Source of the DNA: Candidatus Hydrogenedentota bacterium
GTDB taxonomy: Bacteria; Hydrogenedentota; Hydrogenedentia; Hydrogenedentales; JAEUWI01
Assembly (NCBI GenBank): GCA_019637335.1
Contig: JAHBVV010000001.1
Span: forward strand, 875,440 to 939,439
Direction of reading: 5' to 3'
Length of the DNA stretch: 64,000 nt
Shown here: piece after piece, positions 19,752 to 58,811 of the stretch
Layout: each line of letters opens with the position of its first letter
How positions within the stretch are numbered: the stretch's first letter is position 1
Notes under the pieces: model-generated
What the model was told of the DNA's origin: nothing
The model's input: only the letters and a program-made list of their open reading frames with translations
Databases searched by the model: none
Translations under genes and position numbers: made by a program

Positions 19752-20116
19752 GTAACAGTTTGGCCGTCTGAAGTAGTCACCCTCGTCGCAGCCAACGGTG
19801 GCGGCTAACCGTGATCGAGCACCGTCATCCCCACGAAAGTGGGGATCCAGAGACCATGCAACGTTAACCTCGCAATCCCTCTGGATTCCCGCTTTCGCGG
19901 GAATGACAAATACATTTGGATTCCCGCCTTCGCGGAAATGACGAATACATCTGGATTCCCGCTTTCGCGGGAATGACGAATACATCTGGATTCCCGCCTT
20001 CGCGGAATTGACGAATACTTCTGGATTCCCGCTTTCGCGGGAATGACGAATACATCCAGTGTAAGTAAGGCATCTCGTATCGGCGAACGCCTTACTTCAG
20101 ACGGCTAACGTGTTAC
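19752..20116. mobile_element. 365-bp MITE with 8-bp target duplication
   Basis: The ends are inverted: GTAACAGTTTGGCCGTCTGA at 19752 and, on the other strand from 20116, GTAACACGTTAGCCGTCTGA, matching at 19 of 22 positions. Immediately outside both ends is the perfect direct repeat GTTTTATC (19744-19751 and 20117-20124). No gene lies inside; the interior is the 35-bp array. GTAA termini and 8-bp duplications are features of the IS66 family, so this is probably an IS66-type non-autonomous element. That family link is inference. Confidence 0.85.
19882..20056. repeat. Five tandem 35-bp units with dRS3-like palindrome
   Basis: Each unit contains ATTCCC-N8-GGGAAT or a close variant, followed by GACGAATACATCTGG. 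Units 1, 3 and 5 are perfect palindromes. Units 2 and 4 share a broken right arm, so the real period is about 70 bp. The core fits the dRS3 pattern known from Neisseria. A related dyad (CATCCCCAC...GTGGGGATCC) lies at 19825-19853. There are no unique spacers. Confidence 0.92.
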
Positions 20117-37123: not shown

Positions 37124-38083
37124 ATGTCCATGACGTACCAGAATCGAATGATGATCGCGGTCTTCCTGTCCGTGCTCCTGCACGCGGCGGGCTTTGGCGT
37201 GCTTCAGTATTCCTACACACCCCGCCCCGCCCCGCCGCCTCCGGAATCCGCGCCGATCATCGTCAATCTGCAGCCCGAACCCGAGCCGGAGCAGACGCCA
37301 TCCCGGCAGCTCGTCGACGTGGCCGTACCGGCGCCGGAGCCGCCCGACTCCACCGATCGCACTGCGGAAACGAATGCCGAGACGATGACCCTGGCGCGGC
37401 GCCCCGATGCCGCGCCGGCCCCGGCGCTGGCGCCCGACACTTTCGACGCGCTTCCCGCGCCGCCGTCGCCGCCGGAGGAGCCCGCGCCCGCGCCGGTGGA
37501 GCCCCCGCTGGAGCAGGCGCCGCCCGAGGAAGAGCCGGAACCGGCCGAAACACCGGCCCGAAAGCCAACCCCGGAGCGCGCCACACCGCCCGTGGAGGAG
37601 ATGGATGTTCCGCTCGAAACGGTGGAAATCGACGAACCGGCGGAGGCCGAGGAACCCGCCCCCGAACCGCCCATGCAAGTGGCCCGGGCCATGCCTGCGC
37701 CGCCCCAGCGGCCCTCGCCCGGGCGCGCCCGGGAACAGGGCGGCGGCGCGCGCCAGGGCGCGACGAACTTCAGCGCAATCCAGCACGAAATCGCGCCCTA
37801 CCTCAAGCACGTGCGCCAGCTTGTGGAACGCCAGTGGAACGAAATGATATACACGCGCTACTCGGGCACGTCGCCCGTGCGCGCGGTTATCGACTGCGCG
37901 ATCAACCCGCAGGGCGAACTGGTTTCCGTGACGATCATCGAACCCGACCGGGACCGGCTCTACAGCGCACTGTGCCGCGACGCCGTGCAACGCGCGGGCC
38001 CCTTTGGTCCCTTTACCTTCGAGGTGCCGGAAATCTACCGTAACCAGAACCTCGAAATACGCTGGACCTTTAACTTTCTGTAA
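37124..38083 (+). CDS. tonB: TonB-family energy transducer
   Basis: 319 residues. One N-terminal membrane helix (RMMIAVFLSVLLHAAGFGVL) is followed by about 180 residues rich in Pro, Glu and Ala that span the periplasm. A C-terminal TonB-like domain (about 240-319) includes ARYSGTSPVRAVIDCAINPQGELVSVTIIEPDRD. It transmits proton-motive force from ExbB/D to outer membrane receptors. A TATACT -10 box lies at 37099-37104. The stop TAA is part of the GTAA terminus of the element at 38080; before insertion the frame would have ended T-F-N-F-H-stop. Confidence 0.92.
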   Translation: MSMTYQNRMMIAVFLSVLLHAAGFGVLQYSYTPRPAPPPPESAPIIVNLQPEPEPEQTPSRQLVDVAVPAPEPPDSTDRTAETNAETMTLARRPDAAPAPALAPDTFDALPAPPSPPEEPAPAPVEPPLEQAPPEEEPEPAETPARKPTPERATPPVEEMDVPLETVEIDEPAEAEEPAPEPPMQVARAMPAPPQRPSPGRAREQGGGARQGATNFSAIQHEIAPYLKHVRQLVERQWNEMIYTRYSGTSPVRAVIDCAINPQGELVSVTIIEPDRDRLYSALCRDAVQRAGPFGPFTFEVPEIYRNQNLEIRWTFNFL

Positions 38084-39294
38084 CAGTTTAGCCGTCTGAA
38101 GCAAAGAAGTTTTTCAACCACGAATGAACGCAGGGCAGCCTGTTGGCGCAACTGAATATGGGATCACCACGAAGGGCATGGGGCAGCCGCTGGCCGCAAC
38201 CAAGGAATTGATCACCACGAAGGGCACGAAGTCCACGAAGGAAAGAGGTTGGAGAAGGATTGATATTCACGCGACGGCGCAGAGGAGAAAAGGCGCAGAG
38301 GAGACGATCCAGGGCGCGATGCGCGGTTACGGTGGGCGGGGGATTGGATTTGGAGCCACAAAGAGCGCAAAGATCACAAAGGACACGGGGGAGCCTCTGG
38401 CCGCAGCCAGGGAACTGATCACCACGATGGGTACGAAGAGAAACAGAGAAGGGCTTTAACCGCAGAGAGCGCAGAGGATGGCTCTTGTACGCAGATGAAG
38501 TAGGTGGTTGAATGAGGGTGCGTTTTTGACCACGAATGGACAGCAATGCAGACGAATGCGCCGGGAGCGGCGGCTGGCCACGATCAGGATTTGTGACCAC
38601 GGATGACACGGATGACACGGATAGCAATTGGTTCCGGCCGTTGAGGCGTGCCGGCGGCTGCGTGCGATTTTCGACGCAGCCTGTTCGGATTGTTCAGCAT
38701 CCGGGGTGGAACGGGTGGCGGGCTGCTCGGTCTAATCTTGTTCGAGCGTCGCGGCAATCCGTGTCATCGGTGTAATCCGTGGTCAATAGAAGAATACCGG
38801 CCACGATATTCATGGGACGGCCCGGAAATTCTCCTTGGAATTTCCAATTCGTAAATGCTTTTACAACAGATTGTTACGGAGGTATTGCGCGCAAGAACTT
38901 GCAGAAAAAACAAGAAAATGACGGATAGCAGTACGAATTCACACGAATAAGAGAGACTATTGACCGGGTTCGAGGACTGAAATGGAACGATAACAGGTCC
39001 GCCTTTGATCTCTTGAAGTGGATATTTTTTCCACAGATTTGCACAGAACGCCACAGATAAGAGATAGAGACCGGCAGCGCCAGAGAGCCGGGTTGGTGTC
39101 TGCGCGGATCTTTGGAAAAACTCCTTCGTTGCGGCGAAAGGTTGCTCTATGTTCTCCGCGGCCAATCAGGTTTCTTGTTGCCTGGATGCCTGGCCGCGGG
39201 TCTGGGAAAAGGCTGCTTGAACTGAATTTCGGTTTCTTATTCGTGTCCATTCGCGGTAAAACTGGTACTCAACTTCATACGGCTAAAGAATTAC
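38080..39294. mobile_element. 1.2-kb non-autonomous element separating tonB and exbB
   Basis: The left terminus GTAACAGTTTAGCCGTCTGA (38080) is inverted at the right end, where the reverse strand reads GTAATTCTTTAGCCGTATGA (18 of 22 matching). Flanks are AACTTTCT (38072-38079) and AACTTTCA (39295-39302), an 8-bp target duplication with one change. The interior has no gene; it is full of CCACGAAGGGCACGAAG, GATGACACGGAT and AACCACGAATG short repeats. Excising it leaves tonB ending T-F-N-F-H-stop about 39 bases before exbB. Confidence 0.8.
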
Positions 39295-39345
39295 AACTTT
39301 CATTAATCCGAAGCACGCCGCCGACCGCGGCGGCGGGGAAGACCC

Positions 39346-39969
39346 ATGACCGAATTTTACGAACTTATCCAGCAGGGTGGGTGGCTGATGGCGCCGCTGG
39401 GCCTGTGTTCCCTGGTGGCGCTTTCGATCGTCATCGAACGCGCCGCCGCGCTCCGCCGCGACAAGGTCATCCCCCCGGAAATCGTCCGCATCCTGCATGA
39501 ATTTGGAAACGCGGGCGGCGCCACTCCCTCCCACTCCCTGGCGGTCTGCCAGCGCACGCACGGAGCCTTCGCGCGGCTTGCGGAGGAATTGATCCAGTTG
39601 CGGCACCTGAGCCACGCGCAGCTCCTGGAGACGATGCACGCCGTCGGGCGCACCCACGTCGCGCGCCTGGAGCGGGGGCTCACCCTGCTCGAGATCATTG
39701 CGGGCATCAGCCCCCTCATCGGCCTCCTCGGCACGGTTCTGGGCATGGTGACCGTGTTCGACGCCATCACGCAGGACGGGCTCGGCAACCCGCAGGTGCT
39801 GGCGGCGGGCATTTCCCAGGCCCTGGTGACCACGATCGCGGGCCTCTGCGTGGCCATCCCCGCGCTCGCCTTCCACGGCATCTACAGCAAGCGCGTGGAC
39901 GAATTGGCCATCGAGATGCAGGAGCGCGCGACCGCTTTTCTGGCCAAGCTGCACGCGCCGGGGACCTGA
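39346..39969 (+). CDS. exbB: ExbB/TolQ/MotA proton-channel protein
   Basis: 207 residues with three membrane helices: WLMAPLGLCSLVALSIVIERA (about 12-32), LLEIIAGISPLIGLLGTVLGMVTVF (about 113-137) and ALVTTIAGLCVAIPALAFHGIYS (about 155-178). The long cytoplasmic loop is helical. The GISPLIGLLGTVLGM segment is the hallmark of the family. It supplies proton-motive force to TonB or Tol. It was once almost contiguous with tonB (see element at 38080). No ExbD-like gene follows; the next 340 bases are a second element. Confidence 0.93.
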   Translation: MTEFYELIQQGGWLMAPLGLCSLVALSIVIERAAALRRDKVIPPEIVRILHEFGNAGGATPSHSLAVCQRTHGAFARLAEELIQLRHLSHAQLLETMHAVGRTHVARLERGLTLLEIIAGISPLIGLLGTVLGMVTVFDAITQDGLGNPQVLAAGISQALVTTIAGLCVAIPALAFHGIYSKRVDELAIEMQERATAFLAKLHAPGT

Positions 39970-40001: not shown

Positions 40002-40303
40002 GTAACACTTTAGCGGTCTGAAGTGCGGAACAGTATGTGTTTTCACTAGTCGAGCCGGTGTGTATGGAGCGCCGGCGGCCCGCCGGCATTGCACCGAAGA
40101 TGCAAGAATACGTTGCCGGAGTGCTCCGGCGACACGCGGCTTTTTATGCAACGGCAGCATTTCCAGAATGCTCTCTTGCGCCGGCGGCGCAATCTGCCGG
40201 CGGGCCGCCGGCGCTCCATAGTTGCACGTAGCCTTTATTCAGCATATCGCTCGAGTTTGGCCACTGTACTTCGCCACTGTACTTCGCTCGGCTGAAATGT
40301 TAC
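40002..40303. mobile_element. Probable 302-bp MITE after exbB
   Basis: The left end GTAACACTTTAGCGGTCTGA is close to other family members. The right end, read from 40303 on the reverse strand, is GTAACATTTCAGCCGAGCGA (16 of 22 matching). The flanks GCTTCCGC and GATTCCGC match at seven of eight, but one base is extra between the right end and its flank, so the duplication is uncertain. It contains palindromic GCCGGCGGGCCGCCGGC blocks and two copies of CCACTGTACTTCG. No gene is visible. Confidence 0.6.
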
Positions 40304-57877: not shown

Positions 57878-58034
57878 AACCGCAAAGAACGCAGAGAACG
57901 CAAAGAATGGGCGTGGCGCAAGGCTGCTGGCGAGTAAACCAGGCGGCTCCGTCTGTTCAAACACCCCTCCTCCTATCGGGAACACCGCAGACGAACACAA
58001 TGCCCTTTTTGCGCTCTTTGCGTTCTTTGCGGTT
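57878..58034. repeat. Inverted AACCGCAAAGAACGCA repeat
   Basis: AACCGCAAAGAACGCAGAGA (57878) faces its own reverse complement at 58006-58034 (TTTGCGTTCTTTGCGGTT). The same phrase recurs at 58614-58770. Such phrases are common between genes in this type of genome. No gene lies between the aminotransferase and GxxExxY genes. Confidence 0.8.
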
Positions 58035-58049
58035 CCTCCCCATGAAGCC

Positions 58050-58502
58050 TTATCCAAGAAGCCATGCTATCACAACGCTGAATAGGGTGGAGGAAGCGGG
58101 GCACATACCTGAAGCGCCTCCGCGTTGCCTCGCCGGGTCCCAGGCAAACTTCCGGACTTGAAACCGATACGACCCGAAATTGATCAGTAGCCCGTGTTCG
58201 ATCCGTGCCGATTTCAGGTATCCCAGAATTTGCGCCTCATGCTCCGGGGCGAGGGCCTTGACCGCCTTGAGCTCAACGATAAGCCGCCCATTGACCAACA
58301 GGTCGCACACATACTCCCCGATCACCGTGCCGTCTTCATCGAATATCGTGATTGGGAACTGTTGTTCAACCACGAAGCCCGCCTTTCGAAGCCGGTGCGC
58401 CAGGGCATTCTCGTACGGCTTCTCCAGGAGCCCATGGCCATGGTACGCATGAATGGCGTAGGCCGTCTGCCGAACTTGGTCACAAAGCAATTTGATTTCC
58501 AT
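58050..58502 (-). CDS. GxxExxY family protein
   Basis: 150 residues. The family motif G-L-L-E-K-P-Y is at about residues 24-30 (HGHGLLEKPYENALAHRL). Downstream is GEYVCDLLVNGRLIVELKAVKAL, the conserved D..ELK block that resembles a PD-(D/E)xK nuclease core. The family is widespread in intergenic and mobile contexts and its function is unproven. It lies between two copies of the AACCGCAAAGAACG repeat. Confidence 0.87.
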   Translation of the reverse strand: MEIKLLCDQVRQTAYAIHAYHGHGLLEKPYENALAHRLRKAGFVVEQQFPITIFDEDGTVIGEYVCDLLVNGRLIVELKAVKALAPEHEAQILGYLKSARIEHGLLINFGSYRFQVRKFAWDPARQRGGASGMCPASSTLFSVVIAWLLG

Positions 58503-58613
58503 AGAGCGCCCTCCTTTGATCTACATATCGATATGGCCTCACTTAACTATCGTCGCAAAAAAGCGGAATGACAGGACGTGCCGGCATCCAAGTCCGCTGG
58601 CAGACCTTTTCTT

Positions 58614-58770
58614 AGCCGCAAAGAACACATAGAACGCAAAGCGTCTCAGCAGAATACGACCGCTGTAGGACCGACTAGACACCGCGTCTTGATCGAGCGA
58701 CCCACACGCTTTTCTTGAGTGCGCCGACCTTTTACAAAGCCCTTTTGCGTTCTTTGCGTTCTTTGCGGTT
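58614..58770. repeat. Second inverted AACCGCAAAGAACGCA repeat
   Basis: AGCCGCAAAGAACACATAGA at 58614 and its inverse TTTTGCGTTCTTTGCGTTCT at 58744-58770 resemble the pair at 57878-58034. The two pairs flank the GxxExxY gene. Nothing else is seen from 58503 to 58811. Confidence 0.75.
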
Positions 58771-58811
58771 CCTGATAAGGGGCCAGCCCGCGCTGTCGTC
58801 CAGCGAAGCGA

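What the first reader, a model, noticed from the sequence alone, without database searches (positions are those of the whole stretch)
38072..39306. A 1.2-kb non-autonomous element split a tonB-exbB operon and rewrote the tonB stop codon
Both ends carry GTAA-type inverted termini (18 of 22 bases) and are flanked by AACTTTCT/AACTTTCA. If the element and one flank are removed, tonB reads ...T-F-N-F-H-stop and exbB begins about 39 bases later, a normal operon gap. With the element in place the GTAA terminus gives L-stop. This is an unusually clear before/after record of a MITE-type insertion at a gene end, with the gene probably kept functional. Coupling of exbB to the tonB promoter must now cross 1.2 kb of repeat DNA.
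Basis: seen in the sequence. Interest (0 to 1): 0.78.

Follow-up and report, generated by a model that had tools for sequence, protein, structure and literature searches.

The report
IS66-type mini-transposon at tonB stop
A 1.2-kb stretch of gene-less mobile DNA, one of well over a hundred relatives in this Hydrogenedentota genome, landed exactly on the stop codon of a TonB gene and supplied a new stop codon, so the protein is most likely unchanged; the event is clear but of a known kind, although the filler inside it belongs to a poorly described repeat system.

Summary
Window 38080-39294 (1,215 bp) has 22-bp inverted ends (18/22) and an 8-bp target duplication, AACTTTCT/AACTTTCA. It is a non-autonomous IS66-type element. 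In contig C1 (973 kb), 22 end-pairs carry duplications matching at 7-8 of 8 positions, against 0.75 expected. The genome holds 337 such ends (one control hit) but same-genus species hold 3-12. A 1,525-bp IS66 element with the same ends and one 490-aa transposase is present as likely partner.

17 of 29 relatives end exactly in F-L-stop and none ends in H, so the left duplication copy is ancestral. Insertion changed CTT-TAA to CTG-TAA: Leu and stop are kept, and the stop now comes from the element's GTAA end. Three same-genus species lack this insertion; one has a different mini-element at the same stop codon.

The 1.2 kb is composite: a 418-bp mini-element that exists alone elsewhere, plus 803 bp of nested 9-bp-period arrays inserted into an array-like site. 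MITE-supplied stop codons (Coxiella QMITEs) and MITEs inside operons (Chunjie) are already published.

Unexpected lead: inverted 9-bp arrays of the same type bracket GxxExxY genes in this phylum and in Bacteroidota, possibly an undescribed mobile element.

The parts
37130..38083 (+). tonB-like gene; its stop TAA (38081-38083) lies inside the left end of the element
   Evidence: All 12 members of alignment A1 match Pfam TonB_2; ORF ends at 38083
38072..38079 (.). left copy of the 8-bp target site duplication, AACTTTCT (inferred ancestral)
   Evidence: relatives end in Leu-stop
38080..38101 (+). left 22-bp terminal inverted repeat GTAACAGTTTAGCCGTCTGAAG; its TAA is the present tonB stop
38080..39294 (.). 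complete composite non-autonomous element, 1,215 bp
   Evidence: Inverted ends, duplication and multi-copy family; no coding match in five ORFs tested in or overlapping the element
38130..38932 (.). 803-bp insert of nested 9-bp-period arrays (CACGAAGNN, CGCAGAGNN, CACGAATNN, CACGGATNN), absent from the 418-bp form
   Evidence: Alignment to C1:427505-427922; about 40 large interior copies elsewhere
38594..38785 (.). inverted pair of CACGGATNA arrays within the insert (arms 38594-38625 and 38754-38785)
   Evidence: repeat I1, 91% complementary
38933..39294 (.). right part of the 418-bp core mini-element (87% identity to the solo copy)
39273..39294 (-). right 22-bp terminal inverted repeat (GTAATTCTTTAGCCGTATGAAG on the - strand)
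39295..39302 (.). right copy of the target site duplication, AACTTTCA (one change)
39346..39969 (+). exbB/tolQ-like gene with its native 43-nt leader after the right duplication
   Evidence: MotA_ExbB 99 bits
40002..40303 (.). second, 302-bp element of the same end type directly downstream of exbB (ends 16/22; duplication degenerate)

Best explanation
The element is a non-autonomous transposon of the IS66 type (ISBst12-like, single-ORF group). The resident IS66 transposase, or a lost relative, is inferred to recognise the 22-bp GTAA...TTTAGCCGT.TGAAG ends in trans and join them to an 8-bp staggered cut. Here the cut took the last bases of tonB, AACTTTCT. After insertion the end G-TAA follows the duplicated CT in frame, so CTT-TAA (Leu-stop) became CTG-TAA (Leu-stop) and TonB kept its sequence; the original stop was pushed 1.2 kb downstream next to exbB, which kept its own 5' leader. 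The copy is a composite: a 418-bp core mini-element into which an 803-bp block of nested 9-bp arrays had inserted. Shown: ends, duplications, copy family, matching autonomous IS, solo 418-bp form, insertion absent in three same-genus species. Inferred: trans-mobilisation, order of events, near-neutral effect on TonB.
For: Ends 18/22 and duplication 7/8. In C1, 22 end-pairs with duplication of at least 7/8 against 0.75 expected, with perfect matches essentially at length 8 only. 337 ends genome-wide against 1 control hit, 3-12 in same-genus genomes, so a species-level burst. IS66 element at C4:200366-201890: 1,525 bp, ends GTAACACTTTAGCCGTCTGAAG/GTAACACTTTAGCGGACTGAAG, transposase NF033517 279.7 bits over cut-off 180, plus Pfam DDE_Tnp_IS66 and zf-IS66. 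A published ISBst12-group member, ISDge4, has GTAACTGCTCAGCA as one end and an 8-bp direct repeat (PMC12898284). 17/29 relatives end exactly in FL-stop and none in H. Gap in same-genus relatives 72, 28 and 444 nt, none with these ends. Solo 418-bp form with perfect duplication GAAAATCG.
Against: The autonomous IS66 copy has no recognisable 8-bp duplication of its own (AAAAAAAA / AAAGTGTC), so its recent mobility is not shown. Similarity between it and the mini-elements hardly extends beyond the 22-29 terminal bases, so they are not simple internal deletions of this copy. The two duplication copies at tonB differ by one base. No strain of the same species without the insertion was available.
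Confidence: 0.92

Rival explanations
1. One reading: ancestral tonB ended N-F-H-stop and the insertion changed the last residue from His to Leu.
For: The right duplication copy AACTTTCA followed by TTAA would read CAT-TAA.
Against: No relative ends in H; 17 of 29 end exactly in FL-stop, including two of three same-genus species. A single T-to-A change in the right, now non-coding copy is the simpler history.
Confidence: 0.05
2. The mini-element landed first as the 418-bp form and the 803-bp array block was inserted later, in place.
For: The 418-bp form exists alone, and array blocks have entered other copies at another array-like site (C3 copy).
Against: The C1:274914-276020 element, with its own 7/8 duplication, shares the same left junction and array content, which suggests that composites can move as units; a similar independent insertion is not excluded.
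Confidence: 0.4
3. The insertion is a selected regulatory change: it uncouples exbB from tonB by a terminator or a new promoter.
For: It lies between the two genes, and a second element follows exbB.
Against: No promoter-like site (0.9 expected) and 4 terminator-like sites (3.0 expected); other family members lie at varied distances in intergenic DNA and only this one of 20 overlaps a gene end.
Confidence: 0.06
4. Another transposase family (for example Tn3 or IS256) moves the element.
For: Only the terminal 22-29 bp are shared with the IS66 copy.
Against: GTAA ends, an 8-bp duplication and the only IS found with matching ends being IS66. The two other IS66-like genes, at C6 and C26, lack these ends.
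Confidence: 0.04

Closest known systems
IS66 family, ISBst12 group (e.g. ISDge4 of Deinococcus geothermalis, PMC12898284)
   Same: GTAA-type ends, 8-bp direct repeats, single-ORF IS66 transposase in the resident partner
   Different: This element has no transposase gene; beyond the ends it is unrelated to the partner
QMITE1/QMITE2 of Coxiella burnetii (PMC5896051)
   Same: MITEs that overlap gene 3' ends by a few bases and supply only the stop codon (ubiB 2-bp and CBU_2020 3-bp overlap); they serve as insertion sites for other elements
   Different: Different ends and duplication length (QMITE1 2-3 nt, QMITE2 7-11 nt)
Chunjie MITE of Geobacter uraniireducens (Chen et al. 2008, cited in PMC10969869)
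   Same: MITE family with size variation; one copy inserted in an operon, reported as not disturbing operon structure
   Different: 178-235 bp; relation of its ends to these not tested here
Mosaic non-autonomous transposons (TIMEs, Tn3-derived, PMC4133298)
   Same: Non-autonomous ends carrying foreign DNA as a mosaic
   Different: Tn3-type ends

Membership tests
Non-autonomous element (MITE class) | terminal inverted repeats and target duplication | tested here: met
   18/22 ends and 7/8 duplication; family-wide 8-bp duplications
Non-autonomous element (MITE class) | no transposase coding capacity | tested here: met
   No Pfam match in five ORFs in or overlapping the element
Non-autonomous element (MITE class) | high copy number | tested here: met
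   337 ends in the genome, 1 control hit
Non-autonomous element (MITE class) | small size (usually under about 600 bp) | tested here: not met
   1,215 bp as found; the 418-bp solo core meets it. Best called a composite non-autonomous element with a MITE core
IS66 family (as parent) | GTAA ends | tested here: met
   Both ends start GTAA; a published ISBst12-group end starts GTAAC (PMC12898284)
IS66 family (as parent) | 8-bp target duplication | tested here: met
   8-bp repeats for IS66 elements in PMC3281130 and PMC12898284
IS66 family (as parent) | IS66 transposase between matching ends in the same genome | tested here: met
   C4:200366-201890, NF033517 279.7 bits
IS66, ISBst12 group | single transposase ORF, without the extra ORFs | tested here: met
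   1,525-bp element nearly filled by a 490-aa ORF
IS66, ISBst12 group | phylogenetic placement of the transposase | not tested
   No reference set of ISBst12 transposases was aligned
IS66 family (as parent) | transposase acts on these ends | not testable with these tools
   Needs a transposition assay

The most novel reading that the evidence does not exclude
The 803-bp filler belongs to an apparently undescribed mobile repeat system: inverted arrays of a 7-base word plus two free bases (9-bp period), whose coding form brackets a GxxExxY gene (TIGR04256) and whose gene-less forms insert into pre-existing arrays, including those inside IS66-type mini-elements. The GxxExxY protein, perhaps nuclease-like (from memory, not tested), would be the mobilising enzyme.
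Probability: 0.35. Interest if true: 0.75.

Novelty: new member of a known kind. Interest (0 to 1): 0.36.

Why it matters
It is a clean case of a transposon end (GTAA) acting as a replacement stop codon with no inferred change in the protein, and it documents a species-specific burst of IS66-type non-autonomous elements in an uncultured phylum. The more valuable by-product is the lead on 9-bp inverted arrays and GxxExxY genes: such arrays occur here in many copies, the same architecture was seen in another phylum, and no paper found in the searched library describes it.

Tried and rejected
Rfam found no RNA family in the element. Promoter and terminator scans were at chance level. The idea that these elements prefer gene ends was rejected: of 20 elements with duplications in C1 only this one overlaps a gene end. 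Four-helix-bundle genes (TIGR02436) as a partner of the arrays were searched but showed no clear bracketing arrays. A profile search of solved structures with the TonB domain gave nothing. Sequence-string searches of the literature for the arrays gave nothing or two unrelated animal-biology papers. An off-by-one in my first empty-site script was corrected; the relatives' counts are not affected. RNA folding of the whole element had no shuffle control and was not used.

Full report
What is there. The stretch 38080-39294 (1,215 bp) starts GTAACAGTTTAGCCGTCTGAAG and ends with the inverse of GTAATTCTTTAGCCGTATGAAG (18 of 22 bases), flanked by AACTTTCT and AACTTTCA. The upstream gene is TonB-like (TonB_2 in all 12 aligned relatives) and the downstream one is MotA/TolQ/ExbB-like. 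Proteins like this exbB are found in Candidatus Hydrogenedentota assemblies, so the window very likely comes from that phylum.

Is it a transposable element? Yes. The end motif occurs 337 times in the own genome against one hit for the reversed control. In the 973-kb contig C1, 48 plus/minus end pairs lie within 3.5 kb; 22 have direct repeats matching at 7 or 8 of 8 positions, where random pairing predicts 0.75, and perfect repeats occur at length 8 and essentially at no other length. Elements with 7-8/8 repeats range from 152 to 1,617 bp, most near 300 bp. Same-genus genomes hold 3-12 matches, of which several are chance, so the expansion is recent on the genus scale.

Which transposase? The genome holds one intact IS66 element with the same ends: C4:200366-201890, 1,525 bp, a single 490-aa transposase (NF033517 279.7 bits, cut-off 180; DDE_Tnp_IS66; zf-IS66). 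Two other IS66-like genes (C6, C26) lack these ends. GTAAC-type ends, an 8-bp repeat and one ORF match the published description of the ISBst12-group element ISDge4 (PMC12898284); 8-bp repeats are also reported for IS66 elements in Paracoccus (PMC3281130). That this transposase moves the elements in trans is inference; its own copy has no clear duplication, and the mini-elements share only the terminal 22-29 bp with it.

What happened to tonB? With the left repeat as ancestor the empty site reads ACC TTT AAC TTT CTT TAA, T-F-N-F-L-stop; with the right repeat it reads N-F-H-stop; at present it reads ACC TTT AAC TTT CTG TAA, T-F-N-F-L-stop. Of 29 related loci 17 end exactly in F-L-stop and none in H. 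So the ancestor most likely ended in Leu and the protein is unchanged; the right repeat later changed one base. The stop codon is now the TAA of the transposon end. The empty-site gap to exbB is 39 nt; in the 18 relatives with adjacent exbB the gaps are 9-79 nt in 15 cases and 142, 258 and 444 nt in the rest. The 444-nt case, a same-genus species, has a different mini-element (ends GAGGGTGTATGGAA, TAA on both sides) sitting on the same stop codon. Eleven of 29 relatives have no exbB within the fetched 1.3-1.5 kb downstream, so close coupling is not obligatory. No promoter or terminator excess was found.

What is inside? The solo element C1:427505-427922 (418 bp, perfect repeat GAAAATCG) aligns to the first 50 and the last 362 bases of the window element (92% and 87%); the 803 bases between (38130-38932) are absent from it. 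They are chained arrays of a 7-base word plus two free bases, with a roughly 590-bp unit found in many other places at 75-95% identity. In C1, 45 strict arrays occur, none overlapping a predicted gene, with none in the reversed control. The left junction of the insert lies in a CACGAAT array of the mini-element; in a C3 copy an array block entered the same mini-element at a different, CACAGAT array, again starting with (G)GCAGCC. Array blocks therefore seem to enter array-like sites. An element at C1:274914-276020 shares the left junction and has its own 7/8 duplication, so composites may move as units.

A lead outside the question. GxxExxY genes (TIGR04256) in this phylum are often bracketed by inverted 9-bp arrays: 10 of 34 loci by a word-based test and 6 of 34 by a motif-free strict test, against 0 of 29 tonB-control loci in both; among 129 small genes of C1 the only bracketed one is the GxxExxY gene in this window. 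In a Bacteroides finegoldii plasmid the gene sits between radA and the next gene with CACCACAGAGGACGCAGAGGACACGGAGG before it and CTCTGTGACCTCTGTGTCCTCTGTGGTG after it, and a Bernardetia plasmid looks alike; a Sphingomonas plasmid has the gene between fabD and fabG with an array visible only upstream; a Persicobacter copy shows none. Only two papers of the library mention GxxExxY. Whether the protein mobilises the arrays is untested.

Verdict. A real, clear transposon insertion with a replaced stop codon, most likely silent for the protein, by a non-autonomous element of IS66 type. MITE-supplied stops (Coxiella QMITEs, PMC5896051) and a MITE inside an operon (Chunjie, PMC10969869) are known, so this is a new member of a known kind.

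Noticed in passing
window 57880-58775, GxxExxY gene at about 58146-58484 (-): A GxxExxY gene lies between inverted 9-bp-period arrays (AACCGCAAAGAACGCAGAGAACGCAAAG ... TTGCGTTCTTTGCGTTCTTTGCGGTT). The same architecture was found for other GxxExxY genes in the phylum and in Bacteroidota plasmids.
   Followed up: partly
L127 680-1160 (same-genus genome G002): A different mini-element with ends GAGGGTGTATGGAA and TAA on both sides sits exactly at the tonB stop codon of a sister species, an independent insertion in the same gap.
   Followed up: partly
window 40002-40303: Second GTAA-ended element, 302 bp, directly downstream of exbB; its duplication fits only as TGCTTCCGC/CGATTCCGC or 8 bp with one extra base.
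   Followed up: partly
window 19752-20116: A further complete family member (C1:895191-895555, 365 bp) with a perfect 8-bp duplication GTTTTATC.
   Followed up: no
L223 1471-1902 (Sphingomonas parapaucimobilis plasmid): GxxExxY gene placed between fabD and fabG with very short gaps, as if it had inserted into an operon.
   Followed up: no
window 37130-39969: No exbD next to tonB-exbB; the genome's three ExbD genes are on other contigs.
   Followed up: partly
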